Program-made: the position numbers and the translations under genes
Shown: positions 842-35,449 of the stretch, one piece after another
How positions within the stretch are numbered: position 1 is the first letter of the stretch
Layout of the letters: every line of letters begins with the position of its first letter
Notes under the pieces: generated by a model
The model's input: only the letters and a program-made list of their open reading frames with translations
What the model was told of the DNA's origin: nothing
The model's database searches: none
Source of the DNA: Basidiobolus heterosporus B8920
Taxonomy: Eukaryota; Basidiobolomycota; Basidiobolomycetes; Basidiobolales; Basidiobolaceae
Direction of reading: 5' to 3'
DNA length: 37,896 nt
NCBI GenBank assembly: GCA_000697455.1
Contig: JNET01035207.1
Location: 1 to 37,896 of the forward strand

Positions 842-3800
842 TTAGATATCATCTTCGTCACTGCTAACTTCTTCACCATTAGCAATTCTTTGGGCTCTTC
901 TCTTTTGCTTTTGCTTGAGTTCCTTACGAGTAAGCTTCTTCTTGGATACGACCTTGGTAACGTTACCGAAGGCATCAACCTTGGTCTCAGCCTCCTCACG
1001 GGCTTGAAGCTTCTCACCGGCGTTGGTGGAGTAATCATTACCCTCGAGAGTGACGGTACCAGCATCAACTTTCCAGGTTTCGGTACAAAGGCTGGAGGTG
1101 AATTCCTTGTGATGGGAAATCATAACAACACCACCCTCATACTCCTTGATAGCCTCAGCAAGGGCACCAAGAGAGTCACGATCCAAGTAATTGGTAGGTT
1201 CATCAAGAACAAGCAAGTGAGGATTGAGCCACATAGCAGCAGCAATGACAACCTTGACCTTTTGACCACCGGACAAACCGCGGATACGGCTGTGGGTAGC
1301 GAACTCGGCGTCCAAACCAAGATCACCAAGATGTTTTTCAACTTCGGTGGCAGTCAATGATCTGGTCCAAGCACCAGCAAGGGCAGCTTCCTTAGCATCG
1401 TAGGCATCCAACATCTTCTTGAAGCCCCACTTCTCCAAATCTTCGCGAGGAACCCAGGCGTTGTCTTCGTGGCTCTTACCGACCCATTGAACTTCGTATT
1501 CGAAGGAACGACCAGCCTTACGACGACCGTACAAGTCCTCAACCTTAAGCTTTTCACCATCCCAAACAACAATGGTATCCATTTGCTTCTGTTCCTCCTC
1601 GGTGATTTGACGATCAGCCTTGTTCAGGGCTTCACGATCTTCACCGGTTTGGTAACGCCAGCGGATGTACTCGTTAGGAGTTTTGTCAAGATGCTTCTCA
1701 ACGTGATGGAAAGCGTGCTGAGCAACATAAGCAACACGAAGGTTAGGGTGCTTCTTGATTTCACCGCAGTCAGGAACGATTTCACCAGTGAGGACCTTGA
1801 TCATGGTAGATTTACCGGCACCGTTAGGGCCAATGACGGCAACACGAGAGCTCAAGGAGCATTGGACAGAGATGTTGTGCAAAGCAACCTTTGAGGCTCC
1901 GGGATAAGTGTAACCAATGTTGGTCATCTTCAAGATAGCCTTACCCTTGGACTTGACACCATCCAAGATACCAGGAGTAGGAAGCTTGAACTTGTGAGTA
2001 ACACTGGAAAGTTCGTAGTAAGATTTGGCCTCGGGGTATTGCTTCACGAATTCGGAAAGGTTACCCCTGTAGTTCTTCAATTTACGGTTCTCATAATGGA
2101 TGATACCAGTACAGACATTGTCCAAGAAACCAGAGTCGTGAGAAACGAGAATACTGGTCACGTTGGAAAGGCTGTTGAGGTAGTTTTCTAACCAGGCAAC
2201 GTTGGCAACATCCAAGTGATTGGTAGGTTCATCAAGGAGCAAGATATCAGCTTGCATCAACATAGCACGAGCCAATTCCAACTTCATCTTCCAACCACCA
2301 GAGAGGGAGGAAACAGCTTGAAGTTGCATATCTTCGGTGAAACCGACGCTCAAGAGCATATTCTTGATTTCTTCCTCGGAGATGTTAGCGAGGTTCTTAT
2401 CCTTGGCGATGAATTCGCGGACACCCAACTCAGCCTCCTCAGCTTGCAAGTTGTGTTCAACGAAGACGGTCTTAAGCTCATCAGGAGAGGGGAAACCGTT
2501 CAATTTACCTTCGGCAATGGATCTCATGAGGGTGGATTTACCAACACCGTTAGGACCGCAAAGACCGTAGCGTTGACCACGACGAAGCTTGAGTCTGGTG
2601 TTGTTCAACAAGATCATACCACCATAAGCGAGGGAGAACTCGCAGTCGCAAAGCTCTTCGCCTTCTTCCTCATCTGCAGCAGCAGCAGCTTCCTTAGCGC
2701 GGGCTTCATCCCAAGCGATGTAGTGCTTCAAAATGGTGGCGCAGACAGCTTCAGCGTTCTTCTGAAGAATGATAGGAGCAAGATAGGGAACAATGCACAT
2801 ATCCCAGTCAACCTCTTCGAAGCAACGTCTGTTAACAAGACCGGCACACATGGTAGAAACGTAGTTGAGAGCGGTGGTAGAAGCACCAAGCTTGGTAGGG
2901 GCAAGCTCGGTAATTTCCTTTTGAAGGAGGGCAATGACCTCGGAAGCTTCAATGGTCTCGAAGACTGGAGCAGCAGCTTCAGCGTTGGCACCACCGACAC
3001 GAACCAAAGTGGAACGAGCACGCTCAGCGACACTACGAAGCTCAGGGTTAGCACCAATCTCAATGATACGGTCAAGACCAGGGAGCAACTTGGGCAAGAA
3101 TTGAGCGGCATCAGCAGGGTTTTCAACCAACTTGCACATGTTGTCAATAATTACAGCAGTTTGACGTTGAACTGCAGGAGCACGCTCGGCCAAACCACGG
3201 GTAAGAAGAGGAGTCATGATGGCAAGAGCAGGAGCCTCAACTTGAGTAACAAAAGTAGTGGCAGCAAGTTTGTGAATACATTCAGGGACGTTTTCGGGAG
3301 CAGCGATACAGCCGATCAAATCATCCAAAGCAGGCTCAATATCAGGGTTGCCCACGACATCGTAGACATCGCGCATGGTAACCTTGGCAGCCTTTTGGAC
3401 TTCAGGCTTGGTATCCCACATAATCTCGGAAACACGAGGAACGATTTCGGGAAGGCAAGCTCTGACTTGTTGTGAGGAGGTGCGAGAAAGCTCGCTAATC
3501 AAGGACAAACTTCCGAGCTTGGTTTGCCATTTACCATTAACCAAAGCATCGAAGAGAACAGGCAAAAGAGCAGGAACAGCGTGCTCGCAAGGAAGAGCCA
3601 TTAAAGCAGCACCAGCAACTTTAGCGGCCTCACGAACGGCAGCGGATTTGTCAGCAAAACCACCCAAAATGATGGGCAATTCGGGGACGAGGTAGGGCTC
3701 GATGGTGTGACTAAGCTCCTTGGCAAGAGAAGCATAGACCAAAAGAGCACCCTCACGGTCGATGGGAGACTTCTTGTTCTGGGCAGCGATTTTAAGGATC

Positions 3801-4168
3801 TCAATCATACCGAAAGAGGTAACGGCTTGGAAAACGCCAACGTTACCAACGAAAGAGGCAACTTCTTGAGCGACTTGAGTTAAGGCTTCAGTGTTTTCGC
3901 ACTGAGCCAACTTCTGAAGTAGCGCTGAAGCTTTTCCTTTATCAGCAGCACGAACTTGGCATGACTCGTCAGCACATGGAGTTTCACAGTTCAAGTGGAG
4001 GTCAGCAACAGCAGCGGGAAGCTGGGCGATATCGTGGTTCATGTGAAGCATGGTAGAGAGACGATTCAAAGTGATGGAGTTAGGAAAAGCGTTGCCCTCG
4101 AAATCTGACGAAAGAGAGATGCCATCTCCAAGCGACGACGTCACATCATTTATAGAACTTGGCCAACC
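842..4168 (-). CDS. TEF3: Translation elongation factor 3 (eEF3), ABC-F ATPase
   Basis: eEF3 is the fungal ribosome-bound ATPase that helps release deacyl-tRNA from the E site and drives late translocation. The frame codes about 1100 residues, close to the usual 1045-1060 plus an N-terminal extension. Counting from the codon at 4144: HEAT repeats about 100-400, first ABC domain with P-loop GPNGVGKST at 530-538, signature LSGGW near 614 and ILLLDEPTNHLD near 634; second P-loop GPNGAGKST at 772; a chromodomain-like insertion at about 870-915 (FEYEVQWVG); signature LSGGQK near 957 and LLVLDEPTNYLD near 978. The basic tail ends SSDEDDI. The main exon has no upstream in-frame ATG: codon 4144 is GTG and the frame runs back to a pyrimidine-rich 3' splice site at 4169-4170, so the start lies in an upstream exon. 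One possibility is an ATG at 4537-4539 spliced from 4508 to 4157, adding MKNFDDNEPQ; otherwise initiation could be at an internal ATG (MLHMNHD). Confidence 0.95.
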   Translation of the reverse strand, partial: GWPSSINDVTSSLGDGISLSSDFEGNAFPNSITLNRLSTMLHMNHDIAQLPAAVADLHLNCETPCADESCQVRAADKGKASALLQKLAQCENTEALTQVAQEVASFVGNVGVFQAVTSFGMIEILKIAAQNKKSPIDREGALLVYASLAKELSHTIEPYLVPELPIILGGFADKSAAVREAAKVAGAALMALPCEHAVPALLPVLFDALVNGKWQTKLGSLSLISELSRTSSQQVRACLPEIVPRVSEIMWDTKPEVQKAAKVTMRDVYDVVGNPDIEPALDDLIGCIAAPENVPECIHKLAATTFVTQVEAPALAIMTPLLTRGLAERAPAVQRQTAVIIDNMCKLVENPADAAQFLPKLLPGLDRIIEIGANPELRSVAERARSTLVRVGGANAEAAAPVFETIEASEVIALLQKEITELAPTKLGASTTALNYVSTMCAGLVNRRCFEEVDWDMCIVPYLAPIILQKNAEAVCATILKHYIAWDEARAKEAAAAADEEEGEELCDCEFSLAYGGMILLNNTRLKLRRGQRYGLCGPNGVGKSTLMRSIAEGKLNGFPSPDELKTVFVEHNLQAEEAELGVREFIAKDKNLANISEEEIKNMLLSVGFTEDMQLQAVSSLSGGWKMKLELARAMLMQADILLLDEPTNHLDVANVAWLENYLNSLSNVTSILVSHDSGFLDNVCTGIIHYENRKLKNYRGNLSEFVKQYPEAKSYYELSSVTHKFKLPTPGILDGVKSKGKAILKMTNIGYTYPGASKVALHNISVQCSLSSRVAVIGPNGAGKSTMIKVLTGEIVPDCGEIKKHPNLRVAYVAQHAFHHVEKHLDKTPNEYIRWRYQTGEDREALNKADRQITEEEQKQMDTIVVWDGEKLKVEDLYGRRKAGRSFEYEVQWVGKSHEDNAWVPREDLEKWGFKKMLDAYDAKEAALAGAWTRSLTATEVEKHLGDLGLDAEFATHSRIRGLSGGQKVKVVIAAAMWLNPHLLVLDEPTNYLDRDSLGALAEAIKEYEGGVVMISHHKEFTSSLCTETWKVDAGTVTLEGNDYSTNAGEKLQAREEAETKVDAFGNVTKVVSKKKLTRKELKQKQKRRAQRIANGEEVSSDEDDI

Positions 4169-9376: not shown

Positions 9377-10489
9377 ATGTTTGCTTCTCGTCAACTTGTC
9401 TCTATTACTCGTCGTACATTCTCAACTTCGATTTCTGCTGTATGTATTTTAAACTAGTCAATCTGCTTTTTGCTTACATCCTGATTCATTTTTATATTAC
9501 AGAACGTTACCAAAGTTGCTGTTCTTGGTGCTGCTGGTGGTATTGGACAACCTCTCTCTTTAATTTTGAAGCAGTCTACTCTCATTGACCATCTTAGCCT
9601 TTACGATATTGTTAAAACTCCCGGTGTTGCTGCTGATTTGAGCCATATCAACACACCTTCAAAGGTTACCGGACATGTTCCTGATAATGATGGTTTGAAA
9701 GAAGCTCTTACAGATGCTAGTGTTGTTGTTATTCCTGCTGGTGTTCCTCGTAAACCTGGGATGACTAGAGACGACTTATTCCAAACGAACGCCAGTATTG
9801 TTCGTGATTTAGCTAGTGCTGCAGCTCAACATTGCCCCAATGCTCACATCTTGGTCGTTTCGAACCCCGTGAACTCCACTGTTCCCATTGTGGCTGAGGT
9901 TTTCAAGAAGGCTGGTGTCTACAACCCTCGTAAAATCTTCGGTGTCTCTACTCTAGACGTTGTGCGTGCCTCTCGGTTTGTTTCGGAAATCCGCAAAGAT
10001 TTCGATCCTTCAACTCCTATCTCAGTCATCGGCGGCCATTCAGGGACTACTATAATTCCCATCCTTTCTAAGGTTCAAACATCTCAGAAGTTCTCTCAAG
10101 AAGAGGTTGAGGCCGTAACCCATCGAATTCAGTTTGGTGGTGATGAGGTTGTTAAAGCTAAAGCTGGTGCAGGGTCAGCTACTTTGAGTATGGCTCACGC
10201 TGGTGCTCGGTTTGCGCTTGACCTTTTAAACGCTACTGTTTCCAGAAAGAATGGAATTGTCACCCCAGCATTTGTTTCTCTAGAAGCGGATCCTGAAGGC
10301 GGAAAGGTGGTCAGAGGAGAATCAGACAATTGTGATTATTTTGCTGCCGACATCGAGCTTGGTACCGAGGGTGTCAAGAAGATCAACCCGGTGGGAGAAA
10401 TCTCGGAATTTGAGAGAAAATTACTTAACGAAGCCATCCCTCAACTTAAAACCAACATCAAGAGAGGGATTGATTTCGTTAATGCCTAA
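9377..10489 (+). CDS. MDH1: Malate dehydrogenase, mitochondrial
   Basis: NAD-dependent malate dehydrogenase interconverts malate and oxaloacetate in the TCA cycle. There are two exons: 9377-9439 codes only the 21-residue presequence [21 protein letters not shown], rich in Arg/Ser and typical of mitochondrial import; 9503-10489 codes the enzyme (intron GTATGT…TACAG, phase 0). Total 349 residues. Motifs: Rossmann [11 protein letters not shown] at the start, the substrate loop [24 protein letters not shown], and the catalytic histidine in [12 protein letters not shown]. The C-terminus (DFVNA) lacks a peroxisomal SKL, which with the presequence favours the mitochondrial isoform over the cytosolic or peroxisomal ones. 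The intron falls at the targeting-peptide/enzyme junction. Confidence 0.97.
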
Positions 10490-15722: not shown

Positions 15723-18614
15723 ATGCAAAAAATACTTGAATCCGGCTATAATAACTTTTTCACCAGTAAAGATACTAAAAGGCCTTCCTCGAATCTTACT
15801 CGATTTTCTCCAAACGAATGGATTGAAATCAAGGATCCGCAAAATACCGAAACATATTATGCTAATCCAGTAAGAATACTCACCATTTTTTGTTGTGTTT
15901 TCTACCTTGATACCGACTCCTCCGAAATTTTCTAGATAACTGGTGAATGTGCTACAAAGATACCCGTGAATGCAACTATGTTAGTTCTATTATATCAGCA
16001 TGCATGCCAAGAAAACTGCTCTAATTGGTTTGCTTTCTAGTCACCCTAACGATCCTGATGGCGAATGGTGGGAGCTATATGACGAGCAGAATGATCTCAA
16101 CTATTATTACAATACGCTGACAGGGCAAACTGAATGGCTCAGACCTGAAGTAGGACCTATAGTACCTTTATCAGCAATTCAAGTCAGTTCACTATATATG
16201 TGTAACAAAATCCAACCTACATTACTAACAAAACGCTCATTCAATAGGATACAGTAATAGGGCGTAGAGTTTCGATGGTGTTGGCAAATAGAGGCTCTTT
16301 GATCATAGCAGAGCACATAATCAAAGCAGCAGAGAGTGCTGGAAAATCCGGAAACCGTTTTTCATTAAACCAGCGCAATTTGGACTCTGGTGAATTCAAG
16401 GAAATATTATCACTTAAATCGTCGCAGGTTTTTATATTTATTTACTTTACAATAATGTGCTATATGTACTTACACCATTCTTGTTCCAGTTAAAGAATCC
16501 AAAAGTACCGAACACAGAGCATGAGGATAGTTGTGATCTAGGGGTTACGAATGTTACCGAAACCTCGGAAGTTCAGCCTGAACAATCTTGCAACAATTCA
16601 TTAGGAGTCTTAGAGCAGCCTACGACTGGCCATGGATGTGAGGGACCTTTAAGTTCAGGTACCTATTTGTTCATACAAATTCTATCCAACGATATTTCCT
16701 AAACCAAATTCATTTCTTTCGTAGATACTCCTATAGGTTTGTTGCAAAATAGTGCACAGGACTTTCCAACATACCCCGAAAAAGGGCAGCCTCCCCCTTC
16801 CCTAATAAAAAACGATAGCTATACGTAAGTCTCTAATTTGGTATTGAAATCACACTACTGCATCTGTAGATTAATCAAACATGGACTTCTCCCTTCAGTC
16901 CTGCCACCTTTCCACCACAACTGTTGGAGGAGATGAACCAGTTTAAAGTCGATGGGTTTGCTCAAAAATATTTCGCTGTTCATAAAAAAGGACTTTTCAG
17001 AAGAAAAATCTCTATGGAAAAGTTGCTACAATGGTCAAAGGTAAATGCATAATATCGTTAGCAAAATGCCACCAAATCTCACAAAGAACAAATCCTTATA
17101 CGTGAGTAGGACTCTTTGAAGCAACCTTTACTCGTCTTGAACAAATCAGCGCAGAGAGATGCACTGAAATGCTTTAAAAATATCCTTTGTCTTTCACATG
17201 TTTATGCTAACTTCTTTTACGCAACCTATTCCTTAACTTTTCCGTTCACTTATGCAAAGAATTATGGGCGATCGGGCTCATATCAGAGGATTTGGCTTGA
17301 GTAAAGACACACAATGGCTATTGGAAAGAGCCATCACTCTTGGAGAATTGCGAGACGAAGTCTACGTACAACTATGTAAGCAGCTGACCCACAATCCCAG
17401 CAGGTAAGGCTAGCTACAAAGGATTACAGATCTGATAATAACATTTTGCATTGGGATCACCAGTCAAAGCTTGTTTCATGGATGGCAACTGATGTGTGTG
17501 TTTACGGTGACATTCCCGCCATCCAAAAATTTCGAAAAATATATGCAGACCTTTATCAAAGCCCACTTTGATATAAAACAGAGTAAAATCGACATCCTTT
17601 CGAAGCATGCTTATAATAAGCTATTAAAGATTTCCAAGAGTGGACCGCGTGGAAAGGTGCTTACGAGTGAGGAGATTGAACAAGCCAAAGTAAGCTATAT
17701 GCAAAGAAAGTGTAATGTCATTCATTAATACTCACAGGATTTTCAGGAGTCTGCGTTCCATCCTACAGTATTTGGTGAATCTCTGGAATATGTGATGGAA
17801 ATGCAAGCACAATCCTACCCAGCTCTAAAAATCCCCCAGATCCTGTTATTCTTGGCGGAAAGTGTATTAATATTGGATGGTCAATTGTCTGAGGGTATCT
17901 TCCGTCTTTCTGGCGACCCTGAAGCGGCCACTTCATTGGTAAGATATCTTTCACTTAGTGATTACTAAAAGTTCCATTCTAAAACGTGCTCTTCTATTAG
18001 CGATTGAAAATCGAGAAAAGTAGGTCTCTCCATATCCTTACTCACTGAATAAACACTTAAAGCCTCTCCTAGATCAATACGACATTCAGGGGATTACTGA
18101 CCCAAATGTCCCTTCCTCGCTGCTCAAGTTCTGGCTTCGTGATTTGGCAGATCCTCTAATTCCAGCCGAATTTTAATATCCTTTTACAAACATTCTATTT
18201 TGCATTCAGTAACAAAATTCGTGACATTCTTTAACTGATTTACTGATTCGTGCATTCGACATGCCGAAGATTCGAAAGAATCTATCAAAATAGTCGAACA
18301 GCTTCCGGAAATTAACCGAATTGTAGTTCATTTCATGCTTAGTTTTCTTCAGGTAAAGTCTATCCCTGTTGATTCTTTCATGGTGTCAGTTTCTTATTCA
18401 GTTTGAATAGTTGTTCACCACGGAGGAAGCCACCAAGTACACAAAGATGACAGTGGCAAACTTGGCCATGGTATTTGCGCCCAACTTTCTACGATGCCCG
18501 AGTGAAAATCTGAATGAAATATTCGAGAAGACTCGGCACGAACAGGCATTTGTCAAAACCTTACTAGAGCACATGAAGCCAACACAAGTGGCTCCATTGA
18601 AGTCAGTCCTTTAG
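15723..18614 (+). CDS. WW-MyTH4-RhoGAP protein, ARHGAP39/Vilse-like
   Basis: A GTPase-activating protein for a Rho/Rac/Cdc42-type GTPase. Fifteen exons give 669 residues: 15723-15869, 15936-15979, 16041-16182, 16248-16427, 16490-16658, 16725-16824, 16899-17040, 17110-17179, 17250-17403, 17464-17689, 17738-17938, 18001-18019, 18073-18175, 18244-18352, 18411-18614. Domains: a first WW at about 31-60 (NEWIEIKD…YYANPITGE) lacking its second Trp; an intact second WW at about 70-100 (EWWELYDEQNDLNYYYN, TEWLRPE); a Ser/Thr-rich linker; MyTH4 at about 285-440 (CFKIMQRIMGDRAHIRGFGL); RhoGAP at about 465-660 with arginine finger R514 in EGIFRLSG and PNVPSSLLKFWLRDL. Domain order matches ARHGAP39/Vilse, whose animal members link Rac inactivation to the cytoskeleton. 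Two introns are AT-AC U12-type (separate entries). At 17738 or 17747 two in-frame acceptors differ by three codons (DFQ). Confidence 0.92.
17180..17249 (+). other. U12-type AT-AC intron 8 of the RhoGAP gene
   Basis: A 70-nt intron starting ATATCCTTTG and ending TTCAC. The branch site TTCCTTAAC at 17229-17237 is a perfect match to the U12 consensus and sits about 13 nt from the 3' end. Removal is phase 1 and joins CFK to IMQRIMGDR, the MyTH4 core. No GT-AG choice keeps this frame. Confidence 0.9.
18176..18243 (+). other. U12-type AT-AC intron 13 of the RhoGAP gene
   Basis: A 68-nt intron starting ATATCCTTTT and ending GATTTAC, with branch site TTCTTTAAC at 18227-18235, about 9 nt from the 3' end. 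Removal (phase 2) gives PLIPAEFYDSCIRHAED, which aligns with the EFY-x-x-CI segment of ARHGAP39-type RhoGAP domains. Confidence 0.9.
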
Positions 18615-24763: not shown

Positions 24764-26756
24764 ATGCGAGTTCGTCTGAGTTTCGATCCATTGATATTTC
24801 CACTGAGGTGTTGGTACGAGATCCCAGTCGAAGCTTCTCAAAACCCCTTTCGTCTTATCCGCATTCAAGATCTTCTTTCTATCTTAATCCGGGAATTTGA
24901 CATCCAACACAAACCAGAAGATGTCTACTTGGAGATAGATAGTTTTGAACTTTTACCGAGTGGCAATATCACCGGATTGATCAAAGAAAACGATCTGTTA
25001 TGGTTACTATGTTCCCACCCATGTTTCTACTTAACTTGTCGTTCTTAATCGTCTTGCGTTAGTGTTCGTTTAAGAGGTCCGAATTCCTTACCAATACCTT
25101 CAAACAAACCATTCGCGTCTGGTGAATCGAACGGTAATTATTGGCTGTCTCTACCATACTCACTCTACTATTGTTCCTTATCTCGTCTACTTTCCTATTC
25201 TCTTTCAGTTGAAAAGCCAGAGAGTCCAAGTGCCAAAAAAGTTTCCAAAACAACGGCAGACTCGGAAGGTACTTTACTACCCTGGAAAATCCACCTCAAA
25301 CAAAAACTTGCTAATTCCTCCATATTTAAAAGAGACTGTGACAAAACGTAAGAGCAAACAAAGAGACAAATCTGAAACACCCAAGAAATTGGAGTCACGA
25401 AAGCGGCGTAAAATCGAGGAGACGAAAGAGAGTCCCAAGAAGAAAAAAGAAAAAGGACTCAAACAAGCCATCAAAAAAGTGAAAGACAAGATTAAGAAAG
25501 TCAAGTCCAGCCATACCAAGGACACTGAGGTGAAGGGAAAAGAGTAAGAATAATGATGGTTGATAGATTTCAATTAACTGATACTGAGTTGGTTTTCTGC
25601 TTTAATAAGAACACAGCCAGCGGTAAACTCGATTGTTCCTGCTGATTCCTCTTTCAAACCAGAACTTGGTATCTTAGAACCACCTGTTAAGAAAGTGGAT
25701 TCGATCACTCATGTTATAAATGATACACCCATAGGCGACTTAAACTCTACACTGAATATGCTAGCTGCCCCTTCACCCGATACTATCCTCTTGAACGGTA
25801 AAACCCCGACTCAAGCTCGTAACGCGCGCAAACGTAAGAAGCGACAATTAGAAAAGTTGGAGCGTAATATGTTGAAGCAAGATTTAGCACAAACCGCACT
25901 CGAAGCTCCATCAATAAATAAGCCACATGAATTCTATGAGAACCCTTCAGCATCGCTAGTTAAAAACAAAAAGAAAGGTTTCCTGAAGGAGATGCTTAAC
26001 ACACCCCGTGAACATCTACGTTTTGATGAGCCAGTGATAAAAGTGGAGGCAGAGGCAGAAGCAGAAGCAGTAGATAGAGCGATCCCACAGAGTGCTGATG
26101 TAGGTACGACTCAAACAATCACTACCCCACAAAATCCACACATTTCCTCGAACGCTGTTTCTTCTGAGCCCAAACCACTTTCACCCCCTAGAGTGTATCA
26201 CAGCACAGTAGAACTTGGGTTTGATTCGAATCAATCGAACCGTAAGAACCGGAGAAAGTCTAAAAGAGGCTATCCAGAGAGTACCGGCTTTGATTCCCCT
26301 TCCAGCAATCAGGTTTTACAAGAAGAGGATCATGTTGCTCAGCCAATTTCCCCCGCGGTGCATCAAATCTCCAACGACCAACCGGTCGTAGTTGCACTTC
26401 CAGATGAAGGTCCCCGCAACTATACCATCCTGCAACCTCTTGCCAACCCAAAACCAGGGGATTTTATTGCGTACAAAATCCTCGAGATGACAGCCTCATA
26501 CACTCCGGAAATATCGGACTATAAAGAAGCCACAGTGATCTCATTTGATCATTCATCCAACTCGATAACACTGAAGCTGTCACCCCACGCGCTGAAAATT
26601 AATCAAGGCGATTGGGACGGAGTTTCTGCCAGGAAATTCGAATTACAACCCGGATCAGATGATGAATTCCTCATTGAAGGGCAGCAACCGCTAGAAGAAA
26701 TCACATTGGATTATGGCTTACTCATAGACCCACGAAAAATCCCCCAAAACCATTAA
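24764..26756 (+). CDS. COIL: Coilin, Cajal body scaffold
   Basis: Coilin scaffolds nuclear Cajal bodies, where spliceosomal snRNPs are modified and assembled. Five exons, 24764-25002, 25063-25133, 25209-25268, 25333-25543 and 25610-26756, give 575 residues. The N-terminal 95 residues match the coilin self-association domain: MRVRLSFDPLIFPLRCWY, LLSILIREFDI, VYLEIDSFELLPSGNI, ENDLLCVRLRG. The middle is Lys/Ser-rich and disordered, including a basic ARNARKRKKRQ motif resembling the SRSARRKKAKR of plant coilins. The C-terminal 100 residues match the atypical Tudor-like domain (NPKPGDFIAYKILEM, YKEATVISFDHSSNSITL, KFELQP). No RG box is seen. Introns 1 and 3 have weak donors (GTTACT, GTACTT) but are needed for frame. 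Confidence 0.88.
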
Positions 26757-27266
26757 GAACTGTAGACTAGCTGTTTGTCAGTGAATAATAAACGGGCTAT
26801 TTGTCACATTCTGCACTTTAATCCCTTAATTATCTCTACGTGCTAGCTCTATATTGAGTACGATATCTCGCTAGTCTATGAATGCCATATCCTTCCATGA
26901 TCTAAAACCGACTAGAAATTACCTGAGAATTTTGGGCATATTCACCTGCACCTGCACCCGCACCCGCACCGGTACCAATGAGCACCTTTCTATTCAAAGC
27001 TTACTGGATAGCAAGTCACGCAATGTTAATAATATAATAGAATTCGAAAACTCACCCATACATATATTTACTCACCTATATATTTACTGATATTAACCTA
27101 CAGATCCAATACATTTGGTGAGAATCCGAACTTAATGTATTGGCTGAACAGGAACGACTGGTAAAAATAGAATCCAGTCATTTTTTGTCTCTTCAAAATA
27201 GTTACTTTCCCTCAGAGTATCTACTTCCCTACTTATTCTCCCTTTAAGAAAGTAGTCAATGAAACT
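26757..27266. other. Intergenic
   Basis: Spacer between two plus-strand genes. Apart from the short repeat at 26943-26970, nothing is seen. Confidence 0.5.
26943..26970. repeat. CACCTG/CACCCG hexamer repeat
   Basis: Four to five imperfect copies of CACC(T/C)G-like hexamers; simple-sequence repeat. Confidence 0.6.
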
Positions 27267-31110: not shown

Positions 31111-32555
31111 ATGCGATTCCTTCTCAGCTCTAGGTTATACCTAGTATGTTCTTTGTTACACTTTGCTATCGGTCATGACTCCTTTGATTTCATGACCATT
31201 AATGCGCAGGTTCTCGCTGAAAATAAACTGCACATGTTGAATTATGACAGAGGTCTACAGGACTCATTCTATACCTTGAAAAGGCTATCTGAAAAGGCGA
31301 CCCGCAATGGCACCCCGTATACTGTCACGAGCAAAGCACAATTGGCACCAAGTAACAACCCCCATGACTACCTGTCTTTAGCCAGATATTTCTGGCCGAA
31401 CAATAGCACCGCGAACGGGCTACCTTATATCCGTCGAGATGGGCACGTCAATCCAGAAATCACTACTGTCCCCGATTACAAGGTTTTCCGTTCCCTGGTT
31501 AGTATAGCCTATAGAACGGTCATTGGTATTTCGGGAATTGTAATTTTGCTGACTCACTGATCATTTAGGTCCGTGAAGTACAGATCCTGGGACTTGGCTA
31601 TTACTTTTTCGAAAATGAAACGTACGCTTTAAAAGGAATCTCCCGGCTACGATCCTGGTTTCTGGATGACTCTACTCGAATGAATCCGCACCTTCACTTT
31701 GCCTCATTTATCAAAGGCTCAGCTGAGGGACGAAGACAGGGTCTCATCGATTTCAGCGTTGTAAATGATATGTTTGACGTTCTTCCAATCCTACAAAAAT
31801 CAAAGTACTGGCTTCAGAGCGACACCGAAGGGTTGCAGGACTGGTTTACCAAGTATCTAGAGTGGCTAGATACCAGTCAACACAGTATAGAAGAAAGAAA
31901 TTCCATCAACAACCACGGTTGGTACCAAACTTGTCCAGTTGATCACTCATTATATGCTAATAACACTGTCCCAACAGGTACCTATTTTGATGTCCAATAC
32001 ATGGGAATAGCTCTATTTCTAAAGCGTACGGATTTGGCCCTGAAAGTGGCACAGAACGCCTCCATTGCGCGTATTGCAGTCCAAATCGCAATGGATGGCT
32101 CACAGCCTCACGAAACAGCCAGAGCTGCATCATGGTTTTACTCTATTTTCAATTTGAATGGCCTTTTTCTACTCTCCGCATTGTCGGCTCGAGTGGGAGT
32201 AGATCTCTACCATTTCCAGACTGCTGATGGAAGAAGTATCAGAAAAGCTGTTGACTATCTTCTTCCTTACGCCCGAAATCCTCAAACCTGGCCATATGCC
32301 AACATTGACGGGTTTAACTCAACCGTATTGTATGCCAAGGTCTTACAATCCGCCTTCCTCGTCTATCAAAATCCAGAGTACCTAAAGGCCTCTAGAGAGC
32401 TACTTGGCAACTACAATACAAATCATAACCTCACTCGACTTCTCCAACCCTTGAAATTATTTGCTGAATCCGATAATTCGGCAAGCATAATTGCATCTTG
32501 GCAATTTGACCTCATTGCATTAACGTTGCTTTCTTGTATTGTTCTCTATATTTAA
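31111..32555 (+). CDS. Secreted GPI-anchored alginate-lyase-family protein
   Basis: Two exons, 31111-31497 and 31569-32555 (intron GTTAGT…CATTTAG, phase 0), give 457 residues. A signal peptide (LVCSLLHFAIGHDS) is followed by a protein of alginate-lyase-domain type: SKAQLAPSNNPHDYLSLARY, FWPN, GLPYIRRDGHVNPE, SWFLDDSTRMNPHLHFAS, and NNHGWYQT, which resembles the NNH motif at the active site of bacterial AlgL/A1-III lyases. Several N-glycosylation sites occur. The C-terminus ends with small residues near NSAS and a hydrophobic tail (LIALTLLSCIVLYI), as for a GPI anchor. Fungi make no alginate, so the substrate is unknown; wall or environmental polyuronides are guesses. Active-site completeness was not verified. 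Confidence 0.88.
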
Positions 32556-33445: not shown

Positions 33446-34264
33446 GTTGTGTATGTTAGAGTGAATTAGGCAAGTATGGTCTAAAGGTCTCGAGAAATAT
33501 TTAACTATAAAACGGTAAATGCTACTCGGGATATATGATTTCTAAACGCTAGTACACTGAATTGGATGTGGCCCATCCTGATTGGGAGAACTTGAGTTAT
33601 CTTAATTAATTAAATCTCACTGTGAATCAAGTAAGATGGTTAACTTGGTGTTTATATTTAAACAACACATGTTTGGAAGTGTTTGCTAAAAAAGGAGTCT
33701 CTGGCATATGTAAACCTTCCTCACAATGTAGTGCATGATGTACGTTCAAATGATGTATGCTAGACATCGGAAATCACAGAAATTAAACAATGTTTATTCG
33801 ACAACCTGTGCTTATGTTAGTGGAGTATTTCCAAATGGCAGGGGTTGTTGGCGAGAATGAAATAGTGATTCCATCCAATGAAGTACTGCAAAAATCACAT
33901 GATACCATGAGGAAAGTCACCGTTTGGGCGAATGATGAAGTGTAAACACCAAGTGACTATTATAATAGGATCTCTCCCCAATCCTGACTCTCATCTATAA
34001 CTCTATTTGGTTTTTTTTACCCTTAACGCTGTTTTGATTGGATAGTGTGGTTTGTTTACCAGCGAGTACTAAATAGATGACTTGAACCCCCGTCAAGTAT
34101 TCCCCTATCTGATTGAAAATCCTTCTCTATTGCTGCCTTCAATATCCCGTTTTTGCTTGTCTATTGAACACGTTATTCATTATCCTTGACTTTCTCTATT
34201 CTTTGACATTGTTACGTATTCGGGAACCTTGTGTCAATTAAGTTGTCCTTCATAGTCAGTGGTA
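33446..34264. other. Divergent intergenic region
   Basis: Lies between Sec61 beta (minus) and the next plus-strand gene. No supported coding exon was seen. Confidence 0.5.
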
Positions 34265-35449
34265 ATGTCTTCAAGCACACCCATTAGAAATTCGGAGTTT
34301 CCCTCCAATCTCTTTCAGAAAGAGTTAGGAACCCCACCAAAATTTAGACTTAAGAAACCTAAGGAGTCCTGGGACCAGATCATTCGCAAAGCGGTAACCC
34401 TTCGTCCAAAAACAACAACGAACTTCCACGTGCGGGAAATATATGGCCGCGTCATAGAAAGTTTCCCATTTTTCCGCACTGAAAACCCAGAAATTGTTCT
34501 ACAAAACATTAGTGAGGCATTGAAGCAGAGTGACAGTTTTAAATCCTTGGAAGAGAAAGATAATTGGTCTTTGGAGGAAGATATCAAAGGATCTATTTCA
34601 CAAGGCTCCGCTCCTAAACAAGGAAGTTTTGGTGTAGAGTTGAACCAGAATACTTTTAAAATCCCTACTTCCTATGCATTCTCTCCAATTCGGGAATCTA
34701 ATTCTATCGTAAGGCCCTTGGTTCCAAATAATCGACAGATATTACCTGCTGGTGATCCTTTTGGCCCACCCAAGCTTGCTCCCTTACTTCCTTCCTCACC
34801 TACACCATCCTCTCAAAGTTCTCGACGAACACCTCGTAAGCTAAGGGAAAGAGAGCATACTATCAAGATTCTTCCATCTATGGCTTCTTCGGGTTTCAGT
34901 CCTATTCGCTCCCAATCCGGCATCACAGATGTATTTATGAATGATCGACATGATTCTGATACAGAAGACGAAGACTGGAAATCAATTGGGCCCAACAATC
35001 TCTCTCTAAAGAAAAAGATTCCACGCTTTCCATTGGAGCAACTTGTACCATCAACACCATCCAAACGAGTCAACTCAGGCACGGATTCACCCAACTGTTC
35101 CCTACCGCCCACACCAGTAACGCCGTCGACCCCTCTTGCCTGGGCCAGACCAGTCGACATTTTACCTCATACCACCCCTAAGGGAGCGCCACAAGATGAC
35201 GACGAAGATACCGATGATGAAAACTGGGCTCAAATGGACCTCACACCCAAACGGAAACCAGCTTTAGAGTCACATACGCCGATGAAAAAGGCTTTAGACG
35301 ACATTGGAAATGTGGATGAACAACTACCAAACGACAAAAAAATAGCTCTGGAAGCATTGGCGTTATTGTGCTGCTCACCCAATCGAGGCACCATTTCAAC
35401 AGATACCAACCGACATAGCGATGTAAGACCCCCGGCAATATCACTCTAA
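34265..35449 (+). CDS. SP/TP-rich nuclear protein with a forkhead-like region
   Basis: A single exon of 394 residues starting at the first ATG (MSSSTPIRNSEFPSNLF). Residues about 30-100 (SWDQIIRKAVTLRP…FHVREIYGRVIESFPFFR…NISEALKQSDSF) follow the pattern of a forkhead/winged-helix domain, in which an IY-x-x-I-x-x-xFP(Y/F)(Y/F)R segment precedes the recognition helix, but the recognition helix itself is not standard. The rest is disordered and full of minimal or full CDK sites (TPRK, TPSKR, TPKRK, TPMKK, SPIR). Two acidic-Trp motifs, DSDTEDEDW and DDEDTDDENW, are spaced about 85 residues apart. Near the C-terminus a helix (KKIALEALALLCCSP) is predicted. A cell-cycle-regulated transcription or replication factor is my inference; no family name is secure. 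Confidence 0.75.
   Translation: MSSSTPIRNSEFPSNLFQKELGTPPKFRLKKPKESWDQIIRKAVTLRPKTTTNFHVREIYGRVIESFPFFRTENPEIVLQNISEALKQSDSFKSLEEKDNWSLEEDIKGSISQGSAPKQGSFGVELNQNTFKIPTSYAFSPIRESNSIVRPLVPNNRQILPAGDPFGPPKLAPLLPSSPTPSSQSSRRTPRKLREREHTIKILPSMASSGFSPIRSQSGITDVFMNDRHDSDTEDEDWKSIGPNNLSLKKKIPRFPLEQLVPSTPSKRVNSGTDSPNCSLPPTPVTPSTPLAWARPVDILPHTTPKGAPQDDDEDTDDENWAQMDLTPKRKPALESHTPMKKALDDIGNVDEQLPNDKKIALEALALLCCSPNRGTISTDTNRHSDVRPPAISL

What the first reader, a model, noticed from the sequence alone, without database searches (positions are those of the whole stretch)
18176..18243. Second AT-AC U12 intron in the same gene, inside the RhoGAP domain
It begins ATATCCTTTT, has TTCTTTAAC about 9 nt before a terminal AC, and its removal gives PLIPAEFYDSCIRHAED, matching the EFY-x-x-CI segment of ARHGAP39 proteins. 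The rival reading, AT to AG after 34 nt, runs into a stop. Two AT-AC introns in one gene are unusual anywhere, since AT-AC is the minority subtype even among U12 introns.
Basis: partly seen in the sequence, partly recalled or inferred. Interest (0 to 1): 0.85.

Follow-up and report, generated by a model that had tools for sequence, protein, structure and literature searches.

The report
AT-AC minor intron in fungal ARHGAP39
A small rare-type intron interrupts a signalling gene of what is probably a Basidiobolus fungus, and a public protein of a close relative stops exactly where this intron starts; the intron looks real, but it is one more example of a known kind in a fungal genus already reported to be rich in such introns.

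Summary
Window 18176-18243 is a 68-nt, phase-2 intron: TTTTA | ATATCCTTTT ... TTCTTTAAC-TGATTTAC | TGATTC. Of 422 donor/acceptor pairs tested it gives the best protein against five of five homologues; the upstream AT-AC intron, 17180-17249, is likewise first of 759. The gene model has 15 exons (WW, MyTH4, RhoGAP; ARHGAP39/Vilse type), 12 GT-AG and 2 AT-AC introns. The closest proteins are from Basidiobolus. The B. ranarum protein ends at ...PLIPAEF, where exon TA plus intron A reads TAA in the window, so its gene model probably ran into the same intron. The rarity claim is overstated: a strict U12 pattern finds 36 sites in the 8.1-Mb assembly (reversed control 2), 18 starting AT and 18 GT; B. 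meristosporus is published with 249 minor introns; about 50 human genes have two U12 introns. In its favour, GT-AG is the majority in most species and genes with two U12 introns are scarce. No transcript was available; snRNA searches were uninformative, since U2 was not found either. Verdict: a real U12-type AT-AC intron, a new member of a known kind.

The parts
18176..18243 (+). AT-AC U12-type intron 13 (68 nt, phase 2), the finding
   Evidence: First of 422 donor/acceptor pairs against five of five homologues; letters
18176..18185 (+). U12-type 5' splice site ATATCCTTTT
   Evidence: Direct reading
18227..18235 (+). U12-type branch-site motif TTCTTTAAC (one letter from TTCCTTAAC, a consensus recalled, not taken from a call)
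   Evidence: Direct reading
18242..18243 (+). 3' terminal AC, 8 nt after the branch motif
   Evidence: in the 15 AT-AC readings among the 36 genome-wide hits this distance is 7-17 nt (my reading)
18174..18176 (+). Junction-made stop: exon TA + intron A reads TAA if the intron is retained
   Evidence: Translation of the retained form ends AEF*
17180..17249 (+). First AT-AC U12-type intron of the gene (intron 8, 70 nt, phase 1): ATATCCTTTG ... TTCCTTAAC ... CAC
   Evidence: First of 759 pairs against five of five homologues; strict genome-wide pattern hit
15723..18614 (+). WW-MyTH4-RhoGAP (ARHGAP39/Vilse-like) gene, 15 exons, 666 aa; 12 GT-AG and 2 AT-AC introns
   Evidence: Gene model and translation; Pfam MyTH4 102.9 bits, RhoGAP 94.4 bits, WW 28.5 bits; stop TAG at 18612-18614

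Best explanation
It is a genuine minor-spliceosome (U12-type) intron of the AT-AC subtype in the RhoGAP part of an ARHGAP39/Vilse-like gene, probably of a Basidiobolus species. Shown: the sequence signals, the exact coding continuity, and the presence of many similar introns in the same assembly. Inferred: that U11 and then U6atac pair with ATATCCTTTT, that U12 pairs with TTCTTTAAC, and that the minor spliceosome joins 18175 to 18244. If removal fails, the reading frame ends at once at a TAA formed across the 5' junction and the second half of the GAP domain is lost; nonsense-mediated decay of such transcripts is a likely consequence, and there is no evidence that it is used for regulation.
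For: Full match to the U12 5' site and a branch motif one letter off consensus (consensus recalled). 18176/18243 is first of 422 donor/acceptor pairs against each of P0001, P0003, P0005, P0010 and P0063; for P0001 it scores 1699 against 1577 for the best GT-AG pair and 1285 for retention. RhoGAP profile score 96.1 bits (positions 13-147) spliced against 38.8 bits (13-75) if retained. 119 of 120 homologues align across the junction without gap or insertion at it. The annotated B. ranarum protein K7432_002844 (P0002, 91% identity over query 1-301) stops after ...PLIPAEF, at this exon end. The assembly holds 36 strict U12 hits against 2 in the reversed control. Starting with A goes with ending in AC: the first AC or AG 7-17 nt after the branch motif is AC:AG 17:1 for the 18 A-type hits (the upstream intron of this gene included) and 7:10 for the 18 G-type hits (one has neither), Fisher p = 0.0009. 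Of 15 joined A-type peptides from other loci given to Pfam, 8 have a domain above cut-off that spans the junction: VPS9, ATP_bind_1, CLP1_N, zf-C3HC, PSP, zf-TFIIIC and BRCT as AT-AC, MT-A70 as AT-AG. 249 minor introns are reported in Basidiobolus meristosporus (PMC10639083, passages).
Against: No RNA evidence. The branch motif has one non-consensus letter. U11, U12, U4atac and U6atac were not found in the assembly by Rfam models nor U6atac and U12 by recalled motifs, nor CCDC84/CENATAC. But the U2 snRNA control, which the fungus must have, was not found either, only part of the first-look candidates was scored, and no control genome rang in any of these family searches, so the blanks carry little weight. 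Of the 15 A-type peptides given to Pfam, 7 have no domain across the junction. A major-spliceosome AT-AC route cannot be excluded by sequence alone.
Confidence: 0.93

Rival explanations
1. An AT-AC intron removed by the major (U2) spliceosome.
For: U2-type AT-AC introns exist (SCN4A intron 21; PMC2831892, passage).
Against: The sodium-channel examples all carry G at +5; here +5 is C, and the 5' site is a full U12 match with a U12-like branch motif near the 3' end.
Confidence: 0.03
2. No intron: an assembly error or a pseudogene, or a true short protein ending at AEF as annotated in B. ranarum.
For: Read straight through, the frame stops at AEF*; the public B. ranarum protein ends there too.
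Against: The next exon continues the RhoGAP domain in frame, without gap or insertion at the junction against 119 of 120 homologues; an error would not make a complete U12 intron at the break, twice in one gene. The B. meristosporus protein (78% identity) runs across the junction.
Confidence: 0.02
3. The intron is spliced by the minor spliceosome but also regulated: retention serves as a switch that makes a truncated protein with WW and MyTH4 but half a GAP domain.
For: Retention gives an immediate junction-made TAA and a 562-aa product; the B. ranarum model has the same end and is also 562 aa.
Against: The shared end is explained by gene prediction that does not call AT-AC introns; no expression data.
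Confidence: 0.05

Closest known systems
U12-type AT-AC introns of animals and plants (U12DB; passages of PMC2831892)
   Same: ATATCCTT 5' site, TTCCTTRAC-like branch motif close to the 3' end, AC terminus, non-zero phase
   Different: Very short (68 nt); the host gene is a fungal ARHGAP39-like gene, for which one search of the held library found 0 papers with both 'ARHGAP39' and 'minor intron'
Minor introns of Basidiobolus meristosporus and Rhizophagus irregularis (Larue and Roy 2023, PMC10639083; passages)
   Same: Same genus as the closest proteins, same intron class; 249 and 205 minor introns reported
   Different: The individual introns and the AT-AC share for Basidiobolus were not in the passages seen; supplements were not available
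ARHGAP39/Vilse (WW-MyTH4-RhoGAP)
   Same: Domain order and residues around both junctions in fungal homologues
   Different: Human or fly gene structure not compared; residues of the human protein were only recalled

Membership tests
U12-type (minor) intron, AT-AC subtype | 5' site RTATCCTT | tested here: met
   ATATCCTTTT at 18176
U12-type (minor) intron, AT-AC subtype | Branch motif TTCCTTRAC near the 3' end | tested here: met
   TTCTTTAAC at 18227-18235, one letter off, 8 nt before the end
U12-type (minor) intron, AT-AC subtype | Terminal AT and AC give the correct coding junction | tested here: met
   First of 422 pairs for five of five homologues
U12-type (minor) intron, AT-AC subtype | Removal depends on U11/U12/U4atac/U6atac | not testable with these tools
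   Needs RNA experiments
U12-type (minor) intron, AT-AC subtype | Minor snRNAs present in the organism | tested here: inconclusive
   None found, but the U2 control was not found either and the assembly is probably partial
U12-type (minor) intron, AT-AC subtype | Minor intron at the same position in orthologues | tested here: inconclusive
   Indirect only: the B. ranarum model stops exactly here; no DNA of relatives available
ARHGAP39/Vilse | WW, MyTH4 and RhoGAP in this order | tested here: met
   Pfam scan of the 666-aa model: WW 30-53, MyTH4 353-456, RhoGAP 501-629
Major-spliceosome AT-AC intron | G at +5 of the 5' site (as in the sodium-channel examples) | tested here: not met
   +5 is C

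The most novel reading that the evidence does not exclude
In Basidiobolus the AT-AC subtype makes up about half of the minor introns, and retention of this one is a conserved switch that ends the protein at the junction-made stop, giving a WW-MyTH4 form without a working GAP domain.
Probability: 0.05. Interest if true: 0.5.

Novelty: new member of a known kind. Interest (0 to 1): 0.3.

Why it matters
It adds a clear, doubly interrupted gene to the fungal cases of minor splicing and points to a practical consequence: gene prediction that does not call AT-AC introns probably truncates proteins in public Basidiobolus genomes (the B. ranarum ARHGAP39-like entry lacks half its GAP domain). The even A-type to G-type split seen with the strict pattern, if borne out by a census, would make Basidiobolus a useful place to ask what keeps the AT-AC subtype.

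Tried and rejected
Rejected: the AT-AG 34-nt reading (stop after 8 residues); AC at the branch motif (18235; wrong frame and a stop); the GT-AG pairs in the region (best 1577 against 1699 for P0001). An apparent frame problem at intron 2 vanished once GTTAGT at 15980 was taken as donor. Led nowhere: Rfam U6atac, U12, U4atac, U11 and the U2 control, two recalled snRNA motifs, CCDC84. Two more U12-like 5' octamers in the window, at 18032 inside GT-AG intron 12 and at 26887 (surroundings of 26887), gave no hit with a branch motif. Looser ATATCC sites at 34142 (+) and 24047 (-) do have a branch-like motif downstream; 34142 was looked at and its 5' site continues ATATCCCG, not the U12 consensus; 24047 was not looked at. 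Breaks at the first AT-AC intron in 4 of 120 homologues (P0044 and P0085 start after it, P0103 and P0112 have gaps) are only a lead: P0085 comes from a 1310-bp contig, and gaps also occur elsewhere. A PDB sequence search gave only MyTH4 regions of myosins and RhoGAP domains of other proteins and added nothing on the intron.

Full report
Observation. The exon ends GAA TTT TA, the intron starts ATATCCTTTT, holds TTCTTTAAC at 18227-18235 and ends in AC at 18243, and the next exon starts T GAT TCG TGC. It is 68 nt long and phase 2. The first AT-AC intron of the gene is 17180-17249 (70 nt, phase 1; ATATCCTTTG, TTCCTTAAC, CAC).

Test of the junction. I listed every donor (GT, GC, AT) and acceptor (AG, AC) pair at least 30 nt apart around the site, 422 pairs, translated each joined form, and aligned it with five homologues, chosen from the 120 held (P0001 Basidiobolus, P0003 Thamnocephalis, P0005 Funneliformis, P0010 Paraglomus, P0063 Rozella). 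The pair 18176/18243 came first in five of five; at the upstream intron 17180/17249 came first of 759 in five of five. The RhoGAP profile rises from 38.8 to 96.1 bits with the intron removed.

Gene. The model is 15 exons over 15723-18614, 666 aa, with 12 GT-AG introns of 53-74 nt and two AT-AC introns. Pfam finds WW, MyTH4 and RhoGAP, the ARHGAP39/Vilse arrangement.

Organism and relatives. The protein search listed 120 of 379 matches. The two best are Basidiobolus meristosporus (78% over the whole query) and B. ranarum (91% over query 1-301), so the window is most likely from a Basidiobolus species; this is an inference from one protein. The B. ranarum entry K7432_002844 (P0002) ends ...DLAEPLIPAEF. 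In the window the same place reads TAA across the exon-intron border. Of the 120 homologues it is the only one whose own end lies before query residue 365; the other 119 align across this junction with no gap or insertion in query residues 298-305. At the first AT-AC junction 118 of 120 cover query residues 67-75 and 2 of these have gaps there (P0103, P0112); P0044, a second B. ranarum protein, and P0085 start just after it: a lead only. The B. ranarum P0002 model reads through the first junction, so the two AT-AC introns were not treated alike by that annotation, or the first differs there.

Genome-wide. The strict pattern RTATCCTTT-N25-55-CCTTRAC has 36 hits in 8.1 Mb against 2 for the reversed pattern. 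All 36 were read with flanks: 18 start with A and 18 with G. By my reading, 15 of the 18 A-type hits (the upstream intron of this gene included) keep an open frame with an AC 7-17 nt after the motif, one uses AG (an MT-A70 gene), and two are unclear (L012, L042). Of the 15 A-type peptides outside this gene that were given to Pfam, 8 have a domain above cut-off across the junction, one has a sub-threshold match that does not cross it, and 6 have none. Of the 18 G-type hits only 2 were scanned, and both span a domain (Ras; Topoisom_bac). The two strict G-type hits on contig C310 lie 1055 bp apart on one strand; the first is in a topoisomerase gene by Pfam, and the second is probably in the same gene (not tested), so this may not be the only gene here with two minor introns. 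The strict pattern may favour A-type introns, whose 5' sites are recalled to be the more uniform, so the even split is not a census.

Machinery. No minor snRNA or CCDC84 was found, but U2 snRNA was not found either, and no control genome rang in the family searches. The searches cannot speak on this assembly, which is probably partial: the contigs whose lengths I saw are all above 10 kb.

Literature, passages only in each case. PMC10639083 reports 249 minor introns (0.554%) in B. meristosporus, one of the highest densities outside Amoebozoa, and requires at least two minor snRNAs to call presence; it also says GT-AG is the majority in most species and AT-AC about 26% in human. [quoted passage not shown] PMC3584512 gives about 50 human genes with two U12 introns, one per gene being typical. 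PMC2846911 gives near-equal subtypes in Phycomyces. PMC8280824 shows that 92% of A-type minor introns respond to CENATAC depletion in human cells. One search for ARHGAP39 with minor intron found 0 papers.

Conclusion. A well-supported U12-type AT-AC intron, ordinary in kind for this fungus. The pair in one gene is uncommon, but genes with two U12 introns have precedents. The most useful by-product is the likely truncation of a public protein at this intron.

Noticed in passing
P0002 (B. ranarum K7432_002844), C-terminus; window 18175/18176: The annotated protein ends exactly at this AT-AC intron, lacking half its RhoGAP domain: a likely gene-model error.
   Followed up: partly
L030 1501 and 2556 (G000 C310:18904 and 19959): Two strict GT-type U12 hits 1055 bp apart, the first in a topoisomerase III-like gene by Pfam, the second probably in the same gene.
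   Followed up: partly
L025 from 1501 (G000 C256:11966): A U12-type intron that appears to be AT-AG in an MT-A70 methyltransferase gene.
   Followed up: partly
window 18032: ATATCCTTAC, a U12-like 5' octamer, lies inside GT-AG intron 12 of the same gene without a branch motif.
   Followed up: no
P0044, P0085, P0112, P0103 near query residues 65-76: Predicted homologues start or have gaps at the position of the first AT-AC intron, which may mark unrecognised introns in other fungi.
   Followed up: partly
window 842-4168 (-), 9485-10489 (+), 25578-26756 (+), 31569-32555 (+), 34256-35449 (+): Neighbouring ORFs match elongation factor 3, lactate/malate dehydrogenase, coilin Tudor, alginate lyase and, below cut-off, forkhead domains in Pfam.
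   Followed up: no
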